Positions 1-64,000 of a stretch of DNA of 64,000 bases are shown piece after piece. Source of the stretch: Phlyctochytrium arcticum (Eukaryota > Chytridiomycota > Chytridiomycetes > Chytridiales > Chytridiaceae); assembly GCA_025602905.1 (NCBI GenBank), contig JAHLKI010000004.1:744001-808000 (forward strand), in the 5' to 3' direction. The notes beneath the pieces are model-generated. The model made no database searches. It was not told where the DNA came from and worked only from the letters and a program-made list of their open reading frames with translations. The position numbers were made by a program, and so were the translations under genes. Position 1 is the first letter of the stretch; each line of letters begins with the position of its first letter.

Positions 1-76
1 CCAAATTCCCCGGCCGACACAGTATTATACCGTCCTTAATCCTGTACCTTCATCACTGTCGGCGTAGCGTTTAAAA

Positions 77-3000
77 ATGAGTGCTGATCTGGGGTCGTCT
101 GGCGAGGCTACCCCACCCTCGAGGTCGAGCAGTGTCATGACGCCTGATTCAAGGGACGACGAAGATAAAATTCGACTTTACTGCTTTTGTCTGTCGGACG
201 GAAAGGATGGTCGCTTTATGATCCAGTGCGACGGCTGCAAAGAGTGGTACCATGGTAAAGTCAAATGCCTGCGCTGAGGATCTTGCCAAAAATTCATGTG
301 ATTGTATTAGGCGAATGTGTTGTGCCAATATTGACTGTCGATGATGTACAGTATCTTCAAAAGTACTTTTGCAAATTGGTATGCTTCTACTTAGTTTTAT
401 TATACGGTCGCCTGCTGAATGATGGGTTTAGTGTGAGCCGACAAGAGGGAAGAGTGTCTGTAAGTCGAACATTTGGATGGAATAAACAAATGCAAGGGAG
501 CTGATGCACCTGGCGCGTATAGATGTGGAGCCCACGAGAAAGTCTAAACGGGATCGGACCCAAGTCAATTATAATGAGCTGCACCAAGGATTGGCGGTAG
601 AGGAATTGCGGTTCACCAAAGTCCTTCGTGCCCGCACCTTTGCCAAAGATCGTTTTCAGCGAATGAAAGGCCATGAAGTTACTATAGATTGGGCCCGGAA
701 ATCAGGACTGAGGGAGCCAGTCGTTGTACCGACACCGGAAGGATTGGGTATGAAGATGCCGGCCAATACCCTCTCGGTATTTGAAATTCTTGGATCCACA
801 TGGAAACTTGAGAGTTAAAACTGTCATCAGGTCCGAGATGTAGCTAAAATATGTGGGCCCGAGCGTGAAGTCGACGTCATTGAAGTTTCGACCCAGTCAG
901 AGAGAAGCATGACCCTCAATCAATGGGCAGATTATTTCGAAAAATCCCCAGCAGCACGGGGACGCATTCTGAATGTGAGCCGCGACAGGACCCAATATGA
1001 CCATCCTATTTGTTGACTCGTCTCCATAGGTCATAAGTTTGGAGTTTAGTGAAACACAGCTTGCCTCACAAGTCGTGCGCCCGCGGCTCGTGCGTGAAAT
1101 AGATTGGACCGACAACTTTTGGCCGCATAGTTTGAAAGCGAGGAACGATTACCCACATGTCCAACTCTACTGCTTGATGAGCGTGAAGGATAGCTACACA
1201 GAGTACGCACACTCCACCCATTAGGCTCCTCTTTGAAACCAACTGACACGTTTTGCAGCTTTCATATCGATTTTGGAGGTTCATCCGTCTTTTACCATCT
1301 TCTTGCGGGCAAAAAAGTATTTTACTTCATTGAGCCAACCAAAAACAACTTGAAAAAGGTACACTATCATATGTGCGATCATCCACTATACCTAAGCTAA
1401 AACGACCCAAAAGTATGAAAAATGGTCATCGTCCCCGGAGCAATCAAATACTTTTTTGGGGGACGAGATCCGGGATGGGGCGATCGAAGTACATTTGGAG
1501 GCTGGAAATACGTAAGATCTACTTTGCCTTCTTAGTATCAACAGCGGCTAACTGGGCGTGGTAGTATGATTATACCAACTGGCTGGGTAATTCATCTCGT
1601 CGACAAAAACCTTGGGTTGAACTGACTGAAAATTGATCTGATAGATACATGCCGTATACACGCCAGCCGATTCTATGGTTATAGGTGGAAATTTTCTCCA
1701 GGGTAACTCATATTGAAGATAAATAGTCAAAGAATCTAATGTGTCGTCTAGGACTAAACATTCGCGGTCAACTGGCTATACAAGAAGTTGAAAAACGTAC
1801 CCTGGTTCCTGCTAAATTCCGGTATAGTCTTCAATTCCTCTAAGTCAGGCCGCGTCCGTCTAAAGCTTCCCTTTAGGTTCCCCTTTTTCGACAAGATGCA
1901 GTGGTATGCCGCTAAAAATTATTTGCGTCTTTTACGAGGTAAGTCGATCTCGGATAACTTACTGCGCATTCTTTAAAATAAACCTCAGCACGGCCAATGA
2001 CTTTGTCAAATTGGGAGCTGGACGGAGTGGATGAGCTCATCAACTACTTGCAAGACATTGCTAGCAAGGTCTCAGACGTCAACAATGTCAGTAAGGAAGA
2101 CAGAAAGGCCATAAAGCGCTCTATTCCACCCAAAGTCAAGAATGTGCAAAAACTACTGAGGCAATTGAGAAAACATTTGACGGCTGCCCAGCAACTGCTT
2201 TCGGAATCAAAGGAAAAGATTGTTTCAAATGGGAGCTCCGATTCAAAACCAGTGCCCTCCGTTACGGCAGACCCCTTGCCTATTAACACGGTTGAGTCCA
2301 ATCCCCCTACCGCACCTTTACCCGCAGCCACTGTTCAGATCCCCACCCTTCCACCCGCGAATCAGCCTGGGGCTGATGCGGAAGACTCGGATGACTGGCT
2401 TTCAGATCTGACTGAGATGGAGTTTCTCGACTCGGACGTGGGCAGTCAGCGAGATGATTGGACTACAGACGACAGTTCTGACGGGTCGGATGATAGCGAG
2501 ATGGATCATACCGACATGTATCTGCCAAATCCAAAACACGCTGTCAAGGTCAAAGGGAAACGTCGCCGGCACGAAAAGGATAAAGCCAATGGAGGTGTAG
2601 AACGAGTGAAACGCCCTCGCGTGAAGGATGACGAGGATGATGATGCTCCATCATCTGCAGCTTTGTCGCGTGAACGTACAAAATCTCTGTCGCATGAACG
2701 TACAAAATCTCTGTCGCATGAGCGTACAAAATCTCTGTCGCCGAACGATCAAATACCTCAAATACCGCGCCATACGAGTCTTAGGCCAACACTGTCACTG
2801 GAGCCAAAGTTGGAGAGACCGCTGGTTAATCCAGCACCGCCTAAACCAGTATTCAAGCCATCGGCGACCATATACCAACCATATCCACCACGTGTGAGTG
2901 CATCTCCTGGAATTGTTGTGCCGAGTGCTTCTTCTACAATTGTTGGACCCAGTGCTTCTCCTACAATCGTGGGACCGGAAGCAGGAACACCGATGAACCC

Positions 3001-3112
3001 TGTTTTCGCCAATCCTTCCGCGGTACCTGTGCCGCCCAAGGAGAAGGAAAAGAAACCAGCCGTTTATTCGCGCTTGATGAAGACCATGACAAAAATGTCG
3101 AAACGAAGATAG
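77..3112 (+). CDS. JHD1: JmjC histone demethylase of the JHD1/KDM2 family (PHD + JmjC)
   Basis: Probable nuclear Fe(II)/2-oxoglutarate-dependent histone lysine demethylase; the family acts mainly on H3K36me1/2. The first exons encode a PHD finger ([20 protein letters not shown], continuing to YFCKLC once two introns are removed). The JmjC domain carries the Fe ligands H and D in FHIDFGGSS, a 2-oxoglutarate lysine in [11 protein letters not shown] and the last ligand H in [16 protein letters not shown]-type helix follows the JmjC fold ([14 protein letters not shown]), then a long low-complexity basic and Ser/Pro-rich tail. At least eight short GT-AG introns are needed, for example 254-298, 380-432, 789-830 and 977-1030 (approximate). 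The only ATG in good frame is at 77, and the last exon (about 1991-3112) ends in a TAG stop. The PHD-then-JmjC order matches fungal Jhd1. Family call is firm; exact exon edges in the 1360-1990 part are less sure. Confidence 0.9.
2666..2737 (+). repeat. Three tandem copies of a 24-base coding repeat
   Basis: Three in-frame copies of a 24-base unit encode the octapeptide SLSHERTK (first copy with R for H) in the disordered tail of the JHD1 gene. Only single-base differences separate the copies, so the expansion looks recent. Confidence 0.9.
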
Positions 3113-3237
3113 TGAAAATCGCAGTCATATATCGGGCATGATGCAAAGTGGGAGCAACATCCCCACCTGTAATTAGAATAATTTAAATTTAGAACAAAAA
3201 ACCTATGTACAAATGATAGCGGGCGTCAAAATTCCAG

Positions 3238-4123
3238 TCAAGAGATTTTCATTCCGGCAAGGTCGGCCATGCATTCGCTTTCTATTCGACGCGTGATTTC
3301 TGGAGGAGGTACGAGCTGGCGCAATGAGCTTTCCACTTCAAATTGTGCGCCAAAGAGTTGCTGGCGTGCTTCGTCCAACTTTTGGGTGATATCTACTTGT
3401 TCGCTTTGCATCTATGAAGTGGTGTGAGTACGGTTTCTACATTGATCATGGTGGAGTCTGTACCCCTGAAAGTAGTGCTTTGAGCCTGAGGACTTCCTTT
3501 CTTTTGGCATCGACCCGATGGGCGCGAACCGCTTGTCCAGGTGTTGGCCTACGATACAGGAAATTAGGACATGCTTTTCCTCATCATGCGCTCCATCATC
3601 CTACCGAAAGTGCAAGCAACCTGCAGTAGCTTCATCGACTTTTAAGTTGGCCGCCCCTCGCTTCGCACCCTTTCTAATGGCAGAGTCTGGCTTTTCTATG
3701 ATTTTCTGCTGTGCAGCAGCAACAATCCGGTCTAGTTGATTCAGATTTGCCACCAAATCTCGGTCGGCACTGATGTCTTGAAACTCCTCCTGGTGAGACG
3801 AGATATCAGGACAAGATGAGATGATTCAACGTATCTTGAAAATACCTGTATTGATGTTCGAATGAAATTGATGAGCTGATCTCTTGCGCTGTGAAGGGCC
3901 TTCGGGTCGTCTCGTGCCAGTCTGGGAAAGGCTTGGGCCATTTTTTCGTAGCTGGTAATCTTGTTTGAACACTGCCAAAAGGCTGGAACCTGGAAAGAAT
4001 AGCTCCTTACCTGCAACCTTTTAAGCAGGCGCTTAATGCCGCTTCGAATACCTCCCGTAGTTTGCGCATTCGTGCGCCTTCGCCAGGAACAACGTCCGAG
4101 GGGCCGGCATGGTCCACCTCCAT
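3238..4123 (-). CDS. NNF1: Kinetochore Mis12-complex subunit Nnf1 (PMF1 family)
   Basis: Small spliced gene for the Nnf1/PMF1 subunit of the Mis12/MIND kinetochore complex, which links centromeric chromatin to the Ndc80 complex. The conserved core is visible across exons: MRKLREVFEAALSACLK, then YEKMAQAFPRLARDDP and ARDQLINFIRTSIQ, then after an intron EEFQDISADRDLVANLNQLD, the usual Nnf1 coiled-coil region. The last exon encodes KLDEARQQLFGAQFEV and ends at a TGA at 3238-3240. The start chosen is the ATG at 4123, giving MEVDHAGPSDVV; an in-frame upstream ATG could extend it. About four exons and roughly 200 residues, normal for the family. Transcribed in the same direction as the calcineurin B gene upstream of it. 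Confidence 0.8.
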
Positions 4124-4598
4124 TTGGGTTGACGGCTTGAATCCAGATAAAGGCTCGGTGAAAGTTTTCTATTTGGTCAAACCTTTACCAGGAGTAAGCG
4201 CAGGCACCGTCGAGTGGGTTGTGTTGTGTGAGGAGCAGATCGTCGCCTCGATCGTCGCGTTCCGTCAAATTTCATACCGTATTCTGCTGAACTGTTTTCG
4301 TGCAACACGAACCCTGCTGAATATAAGCTGAACCAAAAATGGGTAATGTATATTGTATATATACGTCAATCAGCAGCCCTTGCTGTGAATGCTGTCAAGC
4401 GATGCGAAGAGAAGGGTATAAAATACAGAGACTTGCAGAAGCAACCACGATGAAAGACTTGGCTAGGTAAACGGATATGCCCGAAATTGTCCCTATCCTC
4501 TTTACAGTCCAAAGGTAGAGTAGAGCATCCCGTGGGGCAAGTCGGAAAGATTTTGGGGGCCTTTGGCATTCAAATTAGGGGAAGTGTCTGGCACTCGT
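4124..4598. other. Intergenic region between NNF1 and calcineurin B
   Basis: 475 bases holding the NNF1 promoter and the calcineurin B 3' end. Short frames are present but none has an ATG plus recognisable sequence. No RNA gene or repeat is seen. Confidence 0.6.
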
Positions 4599-5259
4599 CT
4601 AAATTCGGTCATCTTCCAAGGTCATTTGTCGTGCAACATCCGTTCCTTCCACCATTTTCTGAAACTCTTCAAAAGAAATTTTGCCATCCATATTCAAGTC
4701 TGCCTCCATGATTGTCTTGTCCACAATTTGCTGCAATTGTCCATCACGCAGGTTGTTGCCAACCATCATTTTGAGCACAAGGAAGAGCTCTCCATTTGAT
4801 ATGTATCCGTCTCGATCCATATCGTACACCTTGAAAGCAACTGAAAAAGACTCTGTCAGTCAAATATTGTGATTCAATGGAGGCATGGTCATACATTTCA
4901 GCTTTTCTGTTCGGTTGCCTTTGGCGGAAAACGCGCTCAACCCTGAAATGAATTCCTTGAAATCAACGTCGCCAGATCCATCATTATCAAAAACGGCGAG
5001 TAGTCGATGTGCTAGAGGATTGTTGGCCACTTGTGGCAAGGCCAGAAACTCTTCTTTCGTCAACGACCCAGAACCGTCCTTGTCCAACTTTACGAAACGC
5101 TTGTACAATCGCTGAATTTCCTCCGCCGAAACTAATAATAAAGAAGCAACCCCGACAAGGTCAGTCTTCATTTGTACAGAGGGCAAGATACCCGCGTATG
5201 TCTGGCTTACAATTTGTGGTCGCGACCATATCCTCCAAATTAGAGCCAGTGTTTCCCAT
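4599..5259 (-). CDS. CNB1: Calcineurin regulatory subunit B
   Basis: Regulatory subunit of the Ca2+/calmodulin-dependent phosphatase calcineurin. Three exons join to about 175 residues, the normal size. The N terminus [11 protein letters not shown] has the Gly-2 needed for N-myristoylation. All four EF-hand loops are intact: [36 protein letters not shown] and [12 protein letters not shown]. The first intron lies between 5209 and about 5134 and a second separates EF-hands 2 and 3 (around 4830-4900). The stop is at 4599-4601. It diverges from the TALPID3-like gene across a 277-base promoter region. Confidence 0.95.
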
Positions 5260-15405: not shown

Positions 15406-17150
15406 TCACATAGGGATGCCAGCGAGCAGATCGTTGTTGTTGGCTCGACTCAAGCGGAGTTGAACGTTGCCGAGGGTCCGCGTCGCAAAACCAGCCTCAC
15501 AGTATGCGAAATCTATGTTGCGATAGGTGTCAATGTTTGGATTATACAGGAAAAACGCAACAAATGCCACTTACAATACTCCCATTTCCGCTTGAAGACC
15601 TCATCATACTTGTCTTCCAAGTTGTGTTCTTTGGCGATTTTGTCGCAGTTTTCCATGAACTTTTCCCTCCAGATGCGCAGTGCCTTGGCGTAATGGGGAC
15701 CAATATTGCGAGTCTCGTCCAAAATGAGATTTCCCTTGCTGCCCTGGTACACGGCGTCCACCAGCGCCGTCATGGATGGGCAATGGCCACCAGGAAAGAT
15801 GTGTCGTTGTATAAAATCCACCTTCTTGAGGTAGTTTTGATAACGAGAATCGGGCATTGTGATGACTTGAAGCGCAACGATTCCATTGGCGGGGTGAAGC
15901 AACTCGTGGCATTTTTGGAAAAAGACTGGCAAGAATTCGGGGCCGACAGCCTCCAGCATTTCTATTGCAATAATTCGGTCGAATTTCTTGTGGGGGTTCA
16001 TGTTGCGATAGTCCAGAAGCTGAACATCGATGGCGGACGTCAACCCGGCCTCTGCTATTCGTTTTTCAGCCAATGCTTTTTGCTCCTTGCTCAGAGTCAA
16101 TGTGGTTACGCGACATCCATGGCGGCGAACAGCCTCAATGGCGAGTGCTCCCCATCTATAATGTGATTAGCCTAATCAGCGTTGTTTGAAAAGGTATACA
16201 GATGTCTGACTTACCCGGTGCCAACTTCCAGGACGTGCATGCCTTCTTCGATGGCAGCCATGTCAAGCATGGCGTGGATCTTCCTGTATTGCGCAGCCTC
16301 CAAAGTATCATCCTCCCCATCCCAAATCGGACACGAGTACATCATACTAGGATCCAGGAAACAACCAAACATCTCGTTGCCCAGATCGTAATGGGCTTGT
16401 ATGTTTGTCACTGCATTCAAGATGGTGTTTGGAATCCGAGAATTTAACACGCTATTCAAGACCGAGTTGAGTCCAACAGGAAGCAGTTGCATTTCTGCAT
16501 AATTGTCCCGATTGAGTGCGACAATTTTTAAGAGCGTGGCCAGATTTGTCGCTGTAATCTCTCCATACATGTATGCCTCTCCAAAACCCTACCAATCAAT
16601 CGCGCATTAATTGATCTGTTCGATATTCACCCAGTTTTCGCAGAAAAAAACACATACCATGGCGCTGAAAAGCATTAGCCGCACCCAGAATGTGTCTTTT
16701 ACTACTTGCAGTGTTGCCCTCAAATCTTGATCATGGCGATCGCCAAACTCGTGTACTTGTCCATTTTCTAATGTAATGCGAAGGAACCCGCGCTTTGTGC
16801 GTGATAGTGTTGATAGACATGCTGATCGTGCTGTAGGAAGGAAAAGATCACTGTTAATGTCGGATTACTTATCGGATGCATCAAATGGCCCAAAAAGCGT
16901 GGGAATAATGGGGGGAGTTTTGGCAAACGCGAGAGGAGTCATGAGATGGGAAATGTTGTCGCGAGAGGCGGCGAGCGTTTTGCAACTTACCCGAAGACTT
17001 CACAAACTTGTAGGGCGAAAAGGCCGTCAACCAGCGTGCCCACTGGGCAGGAGCACTTTGGATCAGTTGCTGCTTTTGCGAATCGACAACGGTTTGTGGT
17101 GAGTTTGCTGTGCGTTGAGTCATGCTGTCCGATGCTGTTGTATTTGACAT
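15406..17150 (-). CDS. Cyclopropane-fatty-acyl-phospholipid synthase family methyltransferase
   Basis: SAM-dependent enzyme that transfers a methylene or methyl group to unsaturated acyl chains. The SAM site is VLEVGTGWGALAIEA, split by an intron after GTG. Family landmarks follow: NIQAHYDLGNEMF, LDPSMMYSCPIW, IEMLEAVGPEF, YIQRHIFPGG-like FIQRHIFPGGHCPS and DETRNIGPHYAKAL. The C terminus YCEAGFATRTLGNVQ is also typical. About 430 residues after joining six exons, similar to bacterial Cfa. No N-terminal transmembrane pair of the fungal sphingolipid C9-methyltransferase type is seen, so the Cfa group is preferred. Start is the ATG at 17150 (MSNTTASDSMTQR); stop TGA at 15406. Convergent with the tryptophanyl-tRNA synthetase gene, 224 bases away. 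Confidence 0.88.
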
Positions 17151-29901: not shown

Positions 29902-32900
29902 TTAACCAGTGTTGCCCATTCCCATGGCGATGCCCTGGATGGTGACCGACATCAAATCGCGAATTTGAAGATTTTCTTCCACGCCTTCTTCCTCCGATTG
30001 ACGAAGTAGACTAAGTGCTTCCACTTGCAACAAGCTAACAATTCGGCGTATTAGGTACCCGACACAATCATGAAAGGCCTCTAGCAAAAACTTACTTGAT
30101 GGGATCGGTGAAGGGTAGACGAGTTTCAACTGCACGGCGTACTACGGGGTCAGATGAGAGCAAGTGGTCCGCCTGGGTGACATTCAGGATGGATTTGATA
30201 CACAAATCAAGCTTCTCGCGCAATTCCTTGCCTACGTGACGAACTTCGGGAACAGCCAGGCGAGAGTCGTAGTATTCTATCAAAGTAGGAGGCAGTTAGA
30301 ACGTGATATGCAACGCTTGGGAAAGAATTCCTTTGACTCACCAGAAATGCGTGGGTCGGCCTTGGCCAGCGTCATTTGGATCAAATCCAAGGTAGACTTG
30401 AAGAAGGGCCAGCTTTTGTACATTTCGCGCAGCATCTCGATCTTGCCGGCCGCCTTTGCCTCGACAATAGCTGCCTCAAGTCCCAACCACACAGGTAATT
30501 GCAGGCGGGTTTGCGTAAAGGCAAAGATCCATGGGATTGCTCGCAAAGTTTCAATTCCACCCGTTGCTCGTCGCTTAGAGGGGCGCGACCCAATGTTCAT
30601 GCTGCCAATTTCGGCCAGTGGAGTTGCAGATCGGAAGTAAGGAACAAAATCCGGGGTTTCGCGGACAACTTTACGGTATGAGTGGAAGGATGTTTCAGAC
30701 ATTTGGGACAGGAGATCGCGCCATTCTTGCTTGGGTGGCTCTGGTGGTGCCAGGGTGGAGATGAGGGTTGCAGTGGTGTATCGTTCAAGCGTCTGCTCGG
30801 CTGTTCCTGTGTGACCAAACTACTCTGATGTCAATAAGTAGTTCTCCGCAAGTTCATTTTGCCAAAACTCACATGGTGATCGATAATTTCTCCCTGAATA
30901 GTGATACGCATCCGTCCCTGAACAGTGCCGTTAGGCTGCGACAGAATGGCCAAGTGCTGTGGACCGCCTCCTCGACCAACACTTCCACCGCGTCCGTGGA
31001 ATAGAGTCAACTGAATGTTGTGTTTCTCACAAGTCTTTGCCAGTTCCTCTTGAGTATTGTATAAACCCCATACGGATGTCAATCGACTGCCGTCCTTGGC
31101 AGAGTCAGAGTAACCCAGCATCACTTCCTGACGGCCGTTGATAGAGTTTCGGTAATATTCGACGGACAGAAGCCGGTCCATTGTGGCGGCGGCAGATTCG
31201 AGATCCGCTTTGGTTTCAAACAGAGGAGCGACCCGCATGGGCTGCTCTACTCCGGCGGTTTTTTGCAAAAGTGCAACACTGAGAACGTCGGATGGAGTCC
31301 TTGCCATCGAAATAACATAGGCACCCAGCGCGTCGGAACCGACATCTGCCAGCATACGGAATGTGGCAAACACCTCCTTAACATTGTCCGAAACATTCTC
31401 AGATCCTGCCCCCTTTACTGGCCATTCATGAGGAATGAGTGGGCGCTTGCTTTGCAACTCTACATGCACAGTTCTGATCAGATAACAATCGTGCGATCAA
31501 CGAAGGTCAGGTTCACTCACCCTGAATAAGCCACTCTTGTTTCTTGTCCTCTGACCACTCAATGTATGATCCGAGACCAAGCCATTCGGTAATAGCATCC
31601 ATGGCTTCTGCGTGTCGCTCAGACTCTTGCCGGATGTCGAGTTTGATCAATGACAGGCCAAATGCCGAGATTCGTCGAGCCAAGTTCTTGAGACGTCCAT
31701 TGGCTACAAGCACATCCCCACAGTTCACCAGCGAGCGGTAACAGAGCATGAGTGGCTCAAGGATATCCTCGGGCTTGGAGATGAAACCTTCTGGGGGCGG
31801 GGGCGGGTTCGTTACTCCTATTGACTGTTGGAGATATTCCTCGGTGGCCTTGCAACGGTCGCGGAGAACGGACAAAAGTAAACGGTAAGGCTCATCGCGA
31901 GGAACATTTCCACGCGGGAATGTAAGATTGGTTCTGCGGGATGATTGGACCAATAGTTCCTCGGGAATGGCAGCGACAGCCTTGCGAAGGGCCTCGTCCG
32001 CGACAGTCATACTTAGATCAAACATGAGCTTGTCGACCTCAGCGTAAATGAGGGTCGCAGCACGCCAGCGGCAAAGTTTAATGACTTCTCGCGTGACCTC
32101 GGAGTCGACAAAAGGATTGCCATCTCGGTCGCCACCAATCCAGCTTCCAAACGTGATCAATTTGCTCATGATGGGCAGTGGGGGTTGACCAATCTCAGCC
32201 AGCGCGTAATCGACGGTAGACATGAAGTTGGGGACAGCTGTCCAGATGGCGTTTTCGAGGACCATGAGTCCACTACGAGCCTCGTCTTCGGGAGTAGGCT
32301 TTATGCGACGCACAGTGTTGGTTCGCCAGGTTGCAAGGATCTCACTGCGAAGTGAGGTGCGAAATTCATCCTCTTCTTCAGGAGTCATGATGGTGCGGTC
32401 GCGGACAGCCAAAAGATTGGCAATGTGCAGGTACTTGTCCAGGAGCGTACGGCGAGCAGCTTGTGTAGGGTGCGCAGTCAACACCAGATCAACATTTTGC
32501 GTCAGAAGCGTGTCGCGAATCTGCTTTGGGGTAAATCCTTTGGACATGAGCAGGCCAAAGGCATCGTGACAAGTTTGCCGGTACGAGAGCGAGCTCTTTC
32601 CACGGCGGTATCCGCGCCATCGCCGAACACGGTGCTGACGCTCTGCAATATCTGCCAAGATCAAAAACTCGTGGAAAGCGCGAGCAACCTCGACTAAATC
32701 ACTGGACTGTTGAATACTTCTAATGCGAGTTACAAGGTCCTGGAAGGTCTCATCTGTGTGGCATTTGAAATAGTTTTGGGAGGATGTCAACAGCTCATCA
32801 ATCAAATTGGCAAGTTGCTCGGGAACTCCTCCACCCACGCCGGCATGTTCCCTTATGATTTGCATGAGAAGGTCGGAAAGCAAAATAATGTCATCCTGGG

Positions 32901-33133
32901 CCCAAAGATTAGCATTCCGGCCAACGAGTACAAATAAATCAACCCAAATGTCTTACCCGTAGCGGGGCGTTAAAGTCAACGGCATCCTTCCCGTCGGCTG
33001 CAGATTGTCCTGGGCTTCCGATCAGAGATGTAATGAGCTCTTTAACCGACTCTGTGCGGCCCAAGTCGGTAGTGCTTTCGCGGGGGGAGGCTACAGCATA
33101 GTCGTCCGCGGCAAGTGCCTGGTCGGCCGACAT
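29902..33133 (-). CDS. PPC: Phosphoenolpyruvate carboxylase
   Basis: Carboxylates PEP with bicarbonate to oxaloacetate, replenishing the TCA cycle. All family signatures are present: catalytic His in VDLVLTAHPTQAARRTLLDK, FGSWIGGDRDGNPFV, MLGYSDSAKDGSRLTSVWGL, the glycine loop LFHGRGGSVGRGGGP, GSRPSKRRATGGIETLRAIP with FTQTRLQLPVWLG, and the C-terminal GMGNTG. Full length is about 960-970 residues, the family norm. At least seven introns, including ones at about 32893-32957, 31470-31514 and 30832-30880. The start is the ATG at 33133 (MSADQALAADDY). No plant-type N-terminal phosphoserine motif is evident. The introns show it is a resident eukaryotic gene, not contaminating bacterial DNA. PEPC is normally described from plants, algae, protists and prokaryotes; fungi usually rely on pyruvate carboxylase. 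Confidence 0.95.
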
Positions 33134-35470: not shown

Positions 35471-38400
35471 ATGGCCCGTCATCGTGGTCTACAAGAATGG
35501 TGGGATTTACTAGTAGCTCACTTAACAACAACAGATACGATCCCTCATGTGTCGAGGAAACGGACGGGTCGCACATCTACATCCAGTCTTAAACAGAGCA
35601 GTGTCAAAAACGTTGCAAATTCAAAGACCGGAGGTCAACCTTTGAAGCGGAAGAGTGCGCCAAAACCGCGAGTCAAGTCCTCCCAAGTCGCCCCTGAAGA
35701 CGATGACAATGCTACGTCTAGCCAAGGCATTCAGAGCCAATCATCTACTGGTGAGGCACCACCCTCAACCTTGGCCGCGGCCGAGCTCAAGGATGTCAAT
35801 ATGTCATTTCTTGATATTAGCTCACTGGACACTGATGATGCCGTCTTGCGCCGATATATGAGTCGCTTCACCTTCCGATTTCGCAATCGTCGCACGGAAG
35901 AGCACTATTTCCGTACTCAACTTCTGCCGAATCGAGTTCTTCATCTTCGTCTACTGGCCTTCCTGCAGCTTCTCCAGTATTCCGGGATAATGTTCCCAAC
36001 GTATCGAGCATATGACTGGTTTAATTCACCCAATGTTGAACGTTTTCCGCCAGGGTACATAATACACTGGACATGTTCGGGTCTGGTATGGCTGTTCATT
36101 TTGTATGCGACCCTATGGCGAAAAGGGAATATGTACATCATGCTATGCTTAAGATCCAGAAAGTGGCGGACTTTTCTGACAATCATTGAGGTGACTTATC
36201 CCTCTCACGTTCCAAAGTCGATCATGACACTAAAATCTTGTCCCAGACGCTTGCCGTGGTCACTAATGGAGTATGGGACTACTACCTGGCACCTACTACT
36301 CATGACGCAGTGGGGGCAATTTCCACCACTCCACTCCTGTACTTTGCTGCGGCGAGCGGCTTCGCCTCCACGTACATACAGGGCGTCTTTGGACTGCTGT
36401 TAGTCATGGGACTTTGCGTGGGAAAATTGGCATTAGTCGCTTACTGGCGTGGGGAACACCATGCTCTTGTATATGCTTTGCCTCTGGTGGCTGCGATCAT
36501 TATATCGAATGGTCTCCTTATAGCAGGGGACAAGAGGCGCCGAATCGGGTTCGTTAGTTGCGCTCTCCAGTGATATTTTATGTCTAACACGCGTAACTGG
36601 ATAGTTATATCAAGTACCAGGTGGTTGAAGATCGACTAGCACAAATGCGACTGGAGAGGATGAAAACTGACTATCTACTATCACTGTCGCTACCCAAACC
36701 AATTGTCGCAAAACTGCGCGAAAGTGGACTTGGAAGCCTAGACCTTATCGCCGAGCGTTTCCCACAAGGTATTCAATATTCTTTTCCATGTCACGCCAAA
36801 GGAAGAAGCTCATACTACGGATCCCCAGCAACCGTCATGTTTTGTGACCTGAAAAATTTCAAGGAAGTAACGTCCACCCTCGGGTCAACAAAAGAAGCGT
36901 TGACGCTTCTGAATGGCATCTTTCAACATGTGGACGAAGCAATAGAAGAGTTCAATGACCTATCCAAAATCAAGGTTGCTAGTATTGTAACTAACAAGCA
37001 GGACTCTCTCTAATCCTTCAGCAGACAATATCTACGAAGATATTATTGGTTGGGGGCCTCCAGTCAACACTTTCTCATTTACGTCAGGTGTGTGCCTTCA
37101 ATTCCTAATTTCATAAAGGGCATAAACGCCAATCATTATCGGAGTAGATGGTTGAGCTTGCGATCGGCCTTCGAGAGTACTTTTCCGTCCCACAAATATA
37201 TGACGTGGGAGGCACGCGACTCAATATCAAACTTGACATAGCCTTCGGCATAGCTACAGGTATGTAAAGTATAAAATTACGCGCCCAATTCCAACTGACT
37301 GAACGGCGCATTTAGGACCACTTGTGGCCGGAATCGTTGGCCGTAAAAAGTTTGTCTATGAGGTGTGTGGTTCGTGTCCCGGTTTATACATGTTTTGCCT
37401 CACTTAACGTACTATTCGTTGATTTTTCAGATTTATGGGGATGTCGTCAACACAGGTACTTGGGTACATTGCATGTTAGTGGGGAAAAAACTAACATTTC
37501 CTTGCTCCAGCCAGCAGGTGATATGCCAGGTTATATTCATTCTCAGGCAGTGTTACCAACAATCTCTCTATTGTCATGATAGAATGTGCTCTCTCGCATC
37601 AGAACAGGAAATAATAATAACGGAGGGAGCTCAGCGTCAACTAAGAAATGGTGAGTCTGCTCCAGTTTCGATTGCAGACGCCGGTGCTATTTTATTTACA
37701 CACGGGCCAGTTTTTGATCTACAGCCTTTGGGCCCGAAATATGTCAAAGGCAAAGGGGAAATTCCGGTTTTCTCGGTTACCGGTTTCACTGAACACCCTG
37801 ATGGAGTGATATCCCCACCACGGAGGTTTTCTCGCAAGTCGAGTATTACCACGGGTGAAGGTCCGACTTCACGGTTGGGATCCTTGGTCACCTCCGCCTT
37901 TATAAAGACGCCGTTAACAACAGAAATGGTAGAGGACAGCGTAAGCGGACAATTACCGACCGTTAGTGAAGAAGGTGGACCGGAGGAGTGTCGCTCCGTA
38001 CTCAGCTTTGCACAACCCCAGAGTCTAACTGGTGCATCCAAAATTTTACTCGATCGGTACCTCAGTATTGGCTCGGGGGGTTTGGGCTTAGGAGGAGGAA
38101 TGGAATCACACCAGCCTGCAAAAGCAGCCATGGGAGTGGCCAAACTCGGTAGCCCTCTCACTCTTGCCAAGACTACGCGGACCAACATCGCCCATGTAGA
38201 TCGCGAGTTTGGTGGCTTTAACAACCCGCCTAAAGCGCAAGCGGAACGCAAAAATTCGGCAAGGTCTGGCTCCCGGGGTGGAGGTGAAGCGGGAGAAACG
38301 ACAAACGTCTTGGCCGCGATTCGGGAAGCATCAGAACCGAAAGCCAAAACACTCGCGGAGGAAGAAGATCCGTCCGCGCCAGAGGCCAAGGAGGTGCTTA

Positions 38401-40623
38401 TAGATGTGGTGCTGCGCATGGCTTCTAAGATTGACATGGAGAGCGCGACGGGCCTAAGCTATATGAAGGTTGTATACGAGGAAACCGACGCCTTAAGTGT
38501 ACGATTCAAGAACGCGCTTATCGAGCAGCGGTTCCGTTGGGACTTTACCGGGGACACGCGAGACAAATTTGTCAAAATTGGTGCAATCATTTTGCTGGTC
38601 GAAATATTGTTCTACTTTATGGCTATTTGGAATGCGATTCACTCGGGGGTACAATTGACGTACAAAAAGGTCGATTACTATATGATGGTTGGGCTGGGGA
38701 TAGCCAGCGTGGGTCTGCAAATGCTCCTCACTGGAGTTCTTGTCTTTTCAACAACCGATCCCTCCCCACCATCACGAAATTTCGCGGCTCGCACTGGATT
38801 CTTTTGCGTCTATGTCTTTACCTTATGGGTGAATATATTTTCCGTTTCTCTGCCATGGTCCCATCTGAAGGACACTCACTTTCTGACGAGCTTTGTGCTC
38901 CCTCATCTGGGAGTGTTCCTGATTATGCGCATCGACGGGATGATCTATCTATTTCGCTTGATTGCAGCAATCGTTTTCGGTATTACCCTGATCGGAGTTC
39001 AAATATATCTTCGCCATACACTCTGGCAAGAGGTTGCCTGTATGATTCTCAGTGGGGCACTGTGGATGGTCATATTCTACCTGGTGGAACGACAGCAACG
39101 TGTTGACTACTTGATTGATTTGATCTTGGACACTCAAGGCGAATTGGTTGCGGAGGAGATCAACAAAAGTGCGGCCGTGCTGCACAGCATATTACCGCAG
39201 GCAGTTATTTTGAAGCTTCTGGAGAACCCGACGAGTATAGTCTACGAAGAGATGGAGATGGTGACTGTTCTTCATATGGATATCGTAGGGTATGTGATTA
39301 TTGTTTTCCTGCAAGTAGAGAAGATTCTTATGCTGGTCCCGTCGTACAGGTTTACTGCAATGTCAAGTCAACTAGAACCTTTGACAATCGTCAAGATGCT
39401 CAATACACTATTTACATTTTTCGATCATCTCACCGAAGAATATGCGGTCGAAAAGGTATAGTTGCGCATGTTTCTTTCTTATAGCCACTGAACTAAAACA
39501 TGACCCCGCAAAGATCACTACGATAGGTACATATTTTTTACAGATGGATGAAGCCGTTTTGAGTCAACTCATTCCAATTTTTAGGGGATGCATACGTCGC
39601 ATGCTCGTCCTTTGCTCCAGACGCTGACCATAAAACTGGGGCGCTTTCAATATGTCTTGTCGCGCTTCAAATGCAAGCATACGTGGATCATCAACTCAAC
39701 ACGAGCCAGATTGTCATGCAAATCATCAAGTCCCCGCTGAAGATGAGAATTGGTATCCACACCGGTATGCGGGACGTACAGCGCGCGAAAACACAGAAAC
39801 ACTTATAACTTGATGAGCAGGTCCAGCTTCCGGTGCCATCATGGGTGGGCCCAAGAACTTTCGGTATGATGTCTTGGGAGACACAGGTACGTAGCCAACT
39901 TGGAGCCCACAAATGGTCATAAAGTTAATGTAAATTTTTCACTTTACTGCACAGTTACGTTTGCGGAAAAGGTATATTATATTCATCAGTTAAACTTACT
40001 GCCATCTAACATGCCCTTTGTGCTGATAATAGACACAAGAGCTTTGTCCTACTGGCCAAGTATCCATCACCCAAGTTACTTACTCACTTGTCCGTGACTA
40101 TCACGGATTCAGTTTTCTCTGTCAAATCCCGAGTAAGGCCATCCCTTCACATCTCCGCACGTATACCCTACTCGCCGCTGACGAACGAATTGTCAATCAT
40201 ACCGGCACGGATTGCGACGCACCACCCCCGCCTCCACCCAGTGCACCTCCCCTACAACGAATGCGGTCGCTGAGCGCCGCGTCAAGAACGTCCGCTCCAG
40301 GCGCGTTTTCCAATAGTGCGCTACGTACAGGTCCGGTTGCAACGCTGGGCGTCCCAGGCGGTCCCCGGCGCGCCGGCAGCTTTGTAGTCCCCTCCACATC
40401 TCGCGCTGCTGCGACTGCGAGTCCTCTCACTGACATGCGAAAAAGTGTACCACTTCAAGCTCCACCGCCCGTGCTCCCTATTCTTACCACATCCATGCCA
40501 TCCAGTGAAATCCCGCAGACGCCCACGGAAGAGCCAACACAATCCATACCCCGAGCCTCATCCTTCGTTCGGGATTTCCTGCGCGTAACAGACAAAAAAA
40601 AGGCGGATGGGTCGAAGATTTAG
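35471..40623 (+). CDS. 12-transmembrane class III nucleotide cyclase with two cyclase domains
   Basis: Integral membrane cyclase built as two repeats of (conserved RF-rich lead, about six TM helices, catalytic domain). Lead 1 reads SRFTFRFRNRRTEEHYFRTQ and lead 2 SVRFKNALIEQRFRWDF. TM set 1 spans about 35930-36540, TM set 2 about 38570-39100. Cyclase domain 1 has TVMFCDLKNFKEVT, KIKTISTKILLVGG, FGIATGPLVAGIVG, FVYEIYGDVVNTASRM; the second metal Asp is absent but the catalytic Asn and Arg and the purine-side Lys are present. Cyclase domain 2 has MDIVGFTAMSS and ITTIGDAYV, so both metal Asp residues, but GDTVTFAEK lacks Asn/Arg. The two halves therefore complement each other in one active site, in the reverse order to animal adenylyl cyclases. 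The C-terminal tail is Pro/Ser-rich. Substrate is uncertain: Lys favours ATP, and a Glu replaces the usual adenine-binding Asp. Many introns; start ATG at 35471. Confidence 0.88.
37511..37517 (+). other. 7-base microexon in the cyclase gene
   Basis: CCAGCAG, with introns 37456-37510 and 37518-37582 on either side (both GT-AG). Including it yields VNTASRMCSLASEQ, the conserved cyclase motif. Skipping it joins AACACAG to AATGTGC and reaches a stop after 12 codons. Confidence 0.85.
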
Positions 40624-62864: not shown

Positions 62865-64000
62865 CTATTTCTTTGTAGTCTGACTAGTATAGCCTTCTAA
62901 TTGAGCTAAGAATCGTTCCATCATCGCTTCAAAAATGGGGTTTGCTTCAAGGTGGTCCTCGAGCTTGAAATGGAAGCTTTGAAGTTGCTCCAAAGCTGCC
63001 TTTACGCGGGTTTTGCGGTGGTTCTTCTTGACCTGCGCCGGAGTCACCACAATTTCCCTGACAGGCGCCGTTCCTCGGCCCCAATAAAGCTCAAATCCCG
63101 ATTCTTCAAAATCTCCAATAAACCTTTCCCACGCGGCGTCGGTGAAAGTGGTCTCCTCCGCGCACATGTCTTGGTGAAAGAGATGGACACACGGGAGCAT
63201 ATACTGGCGGGAAAACATGCAATTGCAGTCGAGGTTGTCGATTTGGGGCACTGGCTTACCCTTTTCGATGCGAACGGCGACCATCATAATCTGATCGACC
63301 ACAAGACGTTGTAATGGATGCGGTAACTTTGCTGGAGCAGGATACTGGGCAGTGTGAGTCAAGCGCTTACGGCGGAACGTGTAATCTTGCTGTGCCGCGT
63401 TTTTAGCGTAGCGCTCGTTGACATTCACAATAGTTTTGACCGCCCCACAAAGTGTAGCAGTTGGCTTGCCAACATCCTTTAATTGCTTGTGGTAGGACTC
63501 GAGAGCGTTGGTCGACGTTATCTGCAGGAGCACTGGCGAATGCTGCCTTGCACCCATCGACCAACATTCAAGATGATCCATGTTGGTCCAGTTTCTTTTA
63601 AGATATGTCGCCATATGTGCAGGAGCTCCGGCGATTGCTTCGTCGACCAATTGACGGCAACCGAGGCGGGTCCTCTTATTAAGAGCATGCATCATCTTGG
63701 CGTATGTCGCACGGTGACTGGTCAAATGCTTCATAAACGTACGCATGACGTGAACCTGGAATAGTGAACGTCAGTCTCTCTCCTCGTTAGCCTCTTTCCT
63801 GAATGCCACATTAAACAAGGAAAAAGCATGCCAAACCTTGCAATAATAAATACGGGGTGTTTCTTCACCAGCTGCCATGCCTGGAAAAGCCTTCCGGATG
63901 CCAAGGTTCTCAATATGAGATTGGTCAATCATCACATTGTTTGGAATCCACTTCTTTCCAGTTTCAGCGAGAACAAGATTTCGCAAGGCATTAAGCCCAG
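62865..64000 (-). mobile_element. MULE-type transposase with SWIM zinc finger, cut by the window edge
   Basis: C-terminal part of a Mutator-like transposase. The part nearest the right edge reads NVMIDQSHIENLGIRKAFPG, then after an intron (about 63757-63769 to 63838) YYCKVHVMRTFMKHL; together these match the second catalytic Asp and the C/H motif of MULE transposases. Downstream is a SWIM finger, CNCMFSRQYMLPCVHLF (C-x-C, C-x-H). The frame is then intact to a stop at 62865. The first catalytic Asp, the start and the terminal inverted repeats lie beyond the window. No frame disruption is seen, so it may be a recent or domesticated copy. Confidence 0.75.

What the first reader, a model, noticed from the sequence alone, without database searches (positions are those of the whole stretch)
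35471..40623. 12-TM double cyclase with catalytic halves in reversed order
Domain 1 carries the Asn/Arg (VVNTASRM) and purine-side Lys of an animal C2 domain but lacks the second metal Asp. Domain 2 carries both metal Asp residues (DIVGFT, TIGDAYV) but not Asn/Arg, like C1. Animal adenylyl cyclases have C1 first. Reversed order is known for Dictyostelium GCA and ciliate/apicomplexan guanylyl cyclases, and fungi normally have the peripheral Cyr1 type. This would be a membrane cyclase of protist architecture in a fungus.
Basis: partly seen in the sequence, partly recalled or inferred. Interest (0 to 1): 0.75.

Follow-up and report, generated by a model that had tools for sequence, protein, structure and literature searches.

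The report
Reversed-order membrane adenylyl cyclase in chytrids
A chytrid fungus carries a 12-span membrane enzyme, probably making the messenger cAMP, whose two catalytic halves sit in the opposite order to the animal enzyme; the same genome also holds an animal-order version, so the two arrangements can be compared in one organism.

Summary
Confirmed. Window 35471-40623 is one intact 17-exon gene; my hand-spliced protein equals, letter for letter, a public hypothetical protein of Phlyctochytrium arcticum (1401 aa). Layout: membrane bundle, cyclase domain 1, membrane bundle, cyclase domain 2. Domain 1 holds the base-reading Lys and the Asn/Arg pair but Thr in place of the second metal Asp. 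Domain 2 holds both metal Asp but Thr/Lys instead of Asn/Arg. That reverses the animal tmAC order and leaves one composite site. The pattern recurs in a family of 25 rows (24 named, all as chytrids). The "protist" reading is half right. Protist reversed enzymes carry guanylyl-type Glu; this family carries Lys/Glu, so cAMP is the likelier product. All-column trees join it to two sequences labelled Pigoraptor, not to protist guanylyl cyclases, but that exclusion is lost when active-site columns are dropped. The premise about fungi is incomplete: this genome has a Cyr1-like cyclase and also a second 12-span cyclase in animal order whose halves group with those of animal tmACs. Verdict: new variant of a known kind. 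Activity, product and the origin of the reversal are not shown.

The parts
35471..40623 (+). reversed-order double cyclase gene, 17 exons, 1401 aa
   Evidence: spliced protein equals P0001
35936..36522 (+). first membrane bundle (aa 156-332)
   Evidence: hydropathy
36759..37646 (+). cyclase domain 1 (aa 393-550), C2-like: K444, E518, N525, R529; second metal Asp replaced by T448
37647..38546 (+). long linker between domain 1 and second bundle (aa 551-830)
37711..39289 (+). single exon joining the end of domain 1, second bundle and start of domain 2 (aa 552-1077): shows one gene
38571..39086 (+). second membrane bundle, six spans (aa 839-1010)
   Evidence: hydropathy
39252..40098 (+). cyclase domain 2 (aa 1066-1227), C1-like: D1075, D1119; Asn/Arg positions are T1201/K1205
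40099..40620 (+). C-terminal tail, Pro/Ser-rich
   Evidence: translation

Best explanation
It is a membrane-bound class III adenylyl cyclase acting as an intramolecular pseudo-heterodimer with the halves in reversed order. Shown from sequence: one polypeptide, two membrane bundles, two complementary half-sites. Inferred: D1 and D2 pack head to tail; D2 (D1075, D1119) holds two Mg ions and the triphosphate; D1 reads the adenine with K444/E518 and steadies the transition state with N525/R529. The second, degenerate site (D402/T448 with T1201/K1205) is not catalytic and may be regulatory, as the forskolin site is in tmACs. The membrane bundles are presumed to gate activity in response to a signal not identified here, and cAMP is presumed to act through the genome's cNMP-binding proteins and PDEs.
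For: Intact gene and conservation in 25 family rows. D1 prefers the animal C2 profile in 25 of 25 and D2 the C1 profile in 24 of 25, masked or not. Lys at the first base position: among the 357 proteins fetched, the Asn/Arg half of all 142 canonical-order two-domain proteins is K/D, while 19 reversed ones have Glu. Lys plus Asp in place of Glu plus Cys turns fungal GCs into ACs (passages of PMC12264004); the family has Lys plus Glu, so this supports ATP through the Lys only. NeoR, whose half lacks the catalytic Asn/Arg, has T455/K459 there (same passages), as D2 here has T1201/K1205. An AlphaFold2 model of the 1036-aa orthologue P0024 (mean pLDDT 64.3, pTM 0.51) has human AC5, AC9 and AC8 as its seven best PDB chains; the AC9 soluble-domain entry scores TM 0.75 by its 494 residues, which I take to need both domains.
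Against: No activity, expression or cDNA evidence. Glu instead of Asp at the second base position is outside the norm: K/D in 299 of 299 Lys-bearing Asn/Arg halves outside this family, so specificity could be relaxed. The model is of modest confidence, is of an orthologue lacking the first bundle, and its coordinates were not in my files, so I measured no distances.
Confidence: 0.76

Rival explanations
1. A fungal member of the protist reversed-order guanylyl cyclases (ciliate, apicomplexan, Dictyostelium GCA type), making cGMP.
For: Same order and the same split of residues. With active-site columns dropped, a clade with reversed GC halves is not rejected (p 0.18, 0.12). Weak membrane-bundle profile match to GC bundle 1 (probability 85-88).
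Against: Lys, not Glu, at the base position in 23 of 25 rows; all-column tree rejects the clade (p 0.011, 0.013); PF00211 is the only Pfam family found, so no P4-ATPase part.
Confidence: 0.1
2. About origin, not mechanism: a direct descendant of the animal-type tmAC whose two halves changed places (domain swap), so D1 is true C2 and D2 true C1.
For: Profile preference swaps even with catalytic sites masked; in the all-column tree D1 and the C2s lie on one side of a branch with 94/92.
Against: Without active-site columns the swapped pairing (p 0.26, 0.18), the order-conserved pairing (p 0.34, 0.25) and an own duplication (p 0.39) are all allowed; membrane bundles give no clear correspondence.
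Confidence: 0.35
3. A catalytically dead or purely regulatory relative.
For: Glu at the second base position and the retained lone Asp in D1 depart from tmAC C2.
Against: The residues needed for one site are kept over the family, apart from gaps and a few damaged models.
Confidence: 0.07

Closest known systems
Animal 12-span adenylyl cyclases (AC1-AC9) and their canonical-order chytrid kin (P0240-P0248)
   Same: Bundle, cyclase, bundle, cyclase; one composite site; Lys and Asn/Arg in one half, two Asp in the other; the seven best PDB chains are human AC5, AC9, AC8
   Different: Order of the halves reversed; Lys/Glu instead of Lys/Asp; D1 keeps metal Asp 1 (animal C2 has A, S or G; chytrid canonical C2 has F in 4 and S in 1 of 5 read); linker of 289 aa in the window protein against 125-244 in four animal enzymes
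Reversed-order guanylyl cyclases: ciliates and oomycetes (fetched; ciliates in the trees), Toxoplasma TgATPaseP-GC (passages of PMC6592433), Dictyostelium GCA (recalled)
   Same: Reversed order and the same split of catalytic residues
   Different: They carry Glu at the base position; the ciliate and oomycete ones and Toxoplasma's bear an N-terminal P4-ATPase; kept apart from the chytrid family in the all-column trees
Pigoraptor-labelled reversed-order proteins P0032 and P0034
   Same: Reversed order; Lys at base position; D1 and D2 each group with the chytrid halves (98/94 and 99/93; 84/90 and 92/83 without active-site columns)
   Different: Lys/Asp rather than Lys/Glu; P0032 is cut off before its D2 Asn/Arg positions; cultures were fed on a bodonid
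Fungal Cyr1-type adenylyl cyclase
   Same: Class III cyclase domain
   Different: Cyr1 is peripheral with PP2C next to one cyclase domain (recalled); the window gene shows only PF00211, twice; PP2C and cyclase exons lie side by side on C22 of the same genome (not spliced)

Membership tests
Class III nucleotide cyclases (PF00211) | Cyclase homology domain above the curated cut-off | tested here: met
   two stretches, 225.6 bits for the protein against cut-off 21.9 (unrefined model, first 1301 residues)
Animal-type tmAC | Two bundles of six spans, each before a cyclase domain | tested here: met
   (first bundle 5 clear peaks in the window protein, 6 in S. punctatus; two of four animal enzymes also give 5; hydropathy only)
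Animal-type tmAC | Metal half (C1) first, Asn/Arg half (C2) second | tested here: not met
Animal-type tmAC | Lys/Asp base pair in the Asn/Arg half | tested here: not met
   Lys/Glu
Animal-type tmAC | Groups with tmAC halves in a tree | tested here: inconclusive
Protist reversed-order guanylyl cyclase | Reversed order of halves | tested here: met
Protist reversed-order guanylyl cyclase | Glu at the first base position of the Asn/Arg half | tested here: not met
Protist reversed-order guanylyl cyclase | Groups with GC halves in a tree | tested here: inconclusive
   rejected with all columns, not rejected without active-site columns
Protist reversed-order guanylyl cyclase | Makes cGMP | not testable with these tools
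   needs an assay
Protist reversed-order guanylyl cyclase (Dictyostelium GCA) | Sequence kinship to DdGCA itself | not tested
   DdGCA was not fetched
Cyr1-type fungal adenylyl cyclase | PP2C domain beside one cyclase domain, no spans | tested here: not met

The most novel reading that the evidence does not exclude
A second lineage of membrane adenylyl cyclase, old enough to predate the split of fungi and animals, kept in chytrids and Pigoraptor and lost elsewhere, whose halves specialised in the opposite order to tmACs independently of both tmACs and protist guanylyl cyclases, and which in chytrids reads adenine with a Lys/Glu pair.
Probability: 0.35. Interest if true: 0.72.

Novelty: new variant of a known kind. 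Interest (0 to 1): 0.55.

Why it matters
Of the 42 reversed-order two-domain proteins of my sample, 19 carry the guanylyl-type Glu and the rest are this family (19, two of them damaged) and four K/D proteins, so the family parts domain order from nucleotide choice. One genome holds both orders, a natural comparison of which membrane bundle sits on the metal half and which on the base half; the role of the membrane regions of these enzymes is called unknown in the abstract of PMC9433096 (search listing). It also suggests that membrane cyclases of animal layout were present in early fungi and lost later in many.

Tried and rejected
Deep origin of the reversal: trees with all columns, without active-site columns +-2 and membrane-bundle profile comparison. 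Result: unresolved. A first bundle comparison seemed to favour an unswapped order (chyR-1 with chyC-1, probability 90), but it included part of the cytosolic helix before the domain; with more cut off the signal was gone (0.8 and 0.4), so I dropped it. A second wide protein search with alignment A1 seems to have drawn its words from the first row; its 120 listed rows are mostly animal tmACs and hold no row named as a chytrid; used only as a reference set. tblastn on plasmids gave 234 records under 60% identity; the genera it lists are bacterial; not used. Papers: nine searches on cyclases listed no paper whose title or abstract start describes 12-span adenylyl cyclases in chytrids; most subscription papers are not in that library; PMC12716839 was checked for cyclase terms and has none. 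Rows: one search used 10 of the 25 family proteins and 4 of the 9 canonical chytrid ones. From its 89 rows to the 63 I left out P0022, P0257, P0258, P0040, P0131, P0059, P0060, P0047, P0052, P0057, P0027, P0029, P0031 (long or odd rows); P0041 also out (61 rows). Against a simple story: P0059 domain 1 (canonical order) fell beside the chytrid D2s (97/72), and the two other reversed K/D proteins P0257/P0258 did not join the family, so reversed Lys-type enzymes may have more than one origin. The metal halves of reversed GCs sit with GCs but beside tmAC C1s (88/75).
Full report
Identity and gene. The window lies at C4:744001-808000 of a 31.5 Mb genome. The spliced protein of 35471-40623 is identical to P0001, a hypothetical protein of the chytrid Phlyctochytrium arcticum, and the best match of the C38 paralogue lies on a 219,886-base contig of that species, the length of C38 here; I take the genome to be that species. 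My first model retained two 60-nt introns; comparison with P0001 led to the final 17 exons.

Anatomy. Layout: about 155 residues, membrane bundle, D1, linker, membrane bundle, D2, Pro/Ser-rich tail. The catalytic letters were read from a profile alignment and mapped to codons: D1 D402/T448, K444/E518, N525/R529; D2 D1075/D1119, T1115/D1194, T1201/K1205. This is one complete site shared between halves, with the metal half second, and one degenerate site.

Conservation. One search scored 7,992 candidates; 1,008 passed and 120 were shown. Rows P0001-P0025 form the family (bits 2548 to 419); P0026, unnamed, has one recognised domain at 334 bits; then the score drops to 189. 24 of the 25 carry species names; ten of these taxa were looked up and all ten are Chytridiomycota, in Chytridiales, Spizellomycetales, Rhizophlyctidales, Polychytriales and Cladochytriales or unplaced; the other names I recall as chytrids. 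P0017 has no name. No row named for another fungal phylum is among the 120 listed; many rows are unnamed, so this is not proof of absence. Gaps and odd letters come from rows whose models look truncated or damaged (such as P0006, P0007, P0011, P0013, P0017, P0025).

Which half is which. Profiles from 15 animal tmACs scored the halves: D1 prefers C2 in 25 of 25 (mean 94.0 against 54.6 bits), D2 prefers C1 in 24 of 25 (90.6 against 68.8). Masking catalytic positions +-2 left 25 of 25 (44.6 against 18.6) and 24 of 25 (43.9 against 25.5). Positive control: the canonical chytrid halves come out unswapped, 8 of 8 and 8 of 8 (P0246, with one domain found, was left out). Eight reversed GCs come out swapped, 7 of 8 and 8 of 8. 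The two Pigoraptor proteins are swapped in both halves unmasked; masked, one D1 of two prefers C1 and the means are nearly equal (36.6 and 37.3).

Base choice. Among 565 cyclase domains of the 357 proteins fetched, 355 have both Asn and Arg. Outside the family these carry K/D (299), E/C (14), E/S (12), E/K (5), E/H (2) or E/N (1); within it K/E (19) and three edge or damaged cases. All 142 canonical two-domain proteins are K/D. Of 42 reversed ones, 19 have Glu first, 17 are K/E (this family), 4 are K/D (P0032, P0034, P0257, P0258) and 2 are damaged family members. A second half with unread Asn/Arg positions (P0017, P0020, P0032) counted as lacking them, and proteins split into three pieces, such as the oomycete ones, were not counted. 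The sample follows from my queries and is heavy in animal tmACs. Lys argues for ATP; Glu for Asp is conservative but unseen elsewhere in the sample.

Relatives. In the 89-row tree the chytrid D1s and Pigoraptor D1s form one group (96/95), the D2s another (98/88, with P0059 d1 inside), and both halves of reversed GCs group with animal GCs (99/95). With 63 rows the two family groups stand at 98/94 and 99/93, and holding D1 with GC D1s or D2 with GC D2s is rejected (AU p 0.0106, 0.0133); there the metal halves of GCs sit beside tmAC C1s instead (88/75). Without active-site columns the family groups drop to 84/90 and 92/83 and none of the deeper groupings that I tested is rejected. So 'not a protist GC' rests partly on active-site letters, and swap, order-conserved and own-duplication histories remain open. 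Opistho-1 and Opistho-2, the labels of P0032 and P0034, are clones of Pigoraptor vietnamica and P. chileana, grown on a bodonid prey (passages of PMC7147346); the two proteins are only 28% identical, which makes one shared prey gene unlikely but does not exclude contamination.

The rest of the genome. Other PF00211 hits were read: PP2C and cyclase exons side by side on C22 (Cyr1-like, not spliced), three cyclases on C20 with what look like coiled-coil N-terminal parts, an FHA-GAF cyclase on C16, a PAS-like cyclase on C1 with a matching hit on C13, a partial one on C5, and on C38 a second 12-span double cyclase. I spliced the last; its public counterpart P0240 reads C1 first (D,D | K,D | D,L), C2 second (F,T | K,D | N,R), with kin in Spizellomyces, Thoreauomyces, Geranomyces, Fimicolochytrium, Powellomyces, Borealophlyctis and the blastocladiomycete Paraphysoderma. 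In one search its halves group with animal C1 (91/91) and C2 (99/95). Without active-site columns the C2 group stands (98/98) but the C1 group is not in the best tree and is not rejected either (p 0.38). Its first bundle matches animal bundle 1 (E 1e-11 over 191 columns); its second does not tell animal bundles 1 and 2 apart. So one fungus holds both orders. G-alpha, PDE and cNMP-binding domains are present.

Structure. AlphaFold2 on orthologue P0024 with 20 others: mean pLDDT 64.3, pTM 0.51, cyclase domains mostly 60-93, linker mostly below 50. The seven best PDB chains are human AC5, AC9 and AC8; AC9 soluble domains TM 0.75 by target. This agrees with D1 and D2 pairing as C1/C2 do, but does not prove it. 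A second structural aligner was busy and not used.

Literature. Reversed order is stated for Toxoplasma GC, with a similar two-GC protein in Dictyostelium (passages of PMC6592433). A review of membrane ACs speaks of identical domain order and its text has no hit for fungi, chytrid or Dictyostelium (abstract start and one passage, PMC9552081). The chytrid cyclase papers that I opened concern rhodopsin-GCs (passages: PMC4046227, PMC8815786, PMC12264004, PMC9616733). The nine searches on cyclases listed no description of this family.

Noticed in passing
L024 (C38:206000-213000), exons 1-4686: A second 12-span double cyclase in animal order with Lys/Asp whose halves group with animal tmACs; kin in Spizellomyces and related chytrids, Borealophlyctis and the blastocladiomycete Paraphysoderma.
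   Followed up: yes
L021 (C20:332500-342000): Three cyclases in one cluster with what look like coiled-coil N-terminal parts; read by eye, one is guanylyl-like (Glu/Cys), the others have altered catalytic letters and might be heterodimer partners.
   Followed up: partly
P0131 (eukaryote transcript): P4-ATPase and MORN repeats fused to a double cyclase in canonical order with Lys/Asp, perhaps an adenylyl counterpart of the alveolate ATPase-GC.
   Followed up: partly
P0257, P0258: Two further reversed-order proteins with Lys/Asp from unnamed transcriptomes that do not join the chytrid family in the tree.
   Followed up: partly
window 30831-32952, - strand: Phosphoenolpyruvate carboxylase (PF00311, 379.9 bits on the ORF 31513-32952); as I recall unusual in fungi.
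   Followed up: partly
window 15513-16166, - strand: Cyclopropane fatty-acid synthase-like methyltransferase exon (PF02353).
   Followed up: partly
window 62865-63770, - strand: ORF with a SWIM-like zinc-finger pattern by eye, perhaps a MULE-type transposon remnant; no Pfam match.
   Followed up: partly
C1:1518771-1519487 and C13:347494-348210: PAS-like cyclase hits with equal or nearly equal scores on two contigs: recent duplication or duplicated assembly; sequences not compared.
   Followed up: no
P0001, P0002, P0014: NCBI files P. arcticum in Chytridiales, yet this protein is 62% identical to Spizellomyces over all of it and only 33% over half of it to the namesake Phlyctochytrium planicorne: the placement looks doubtful.
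   Followed up: partly
P0005, P0006, P0012: Orthologues are named 'Nitrogen permease regulator 2' in public records, although only PF00211 is listed for them: likely a propagated misnomer.
   Followed up: no
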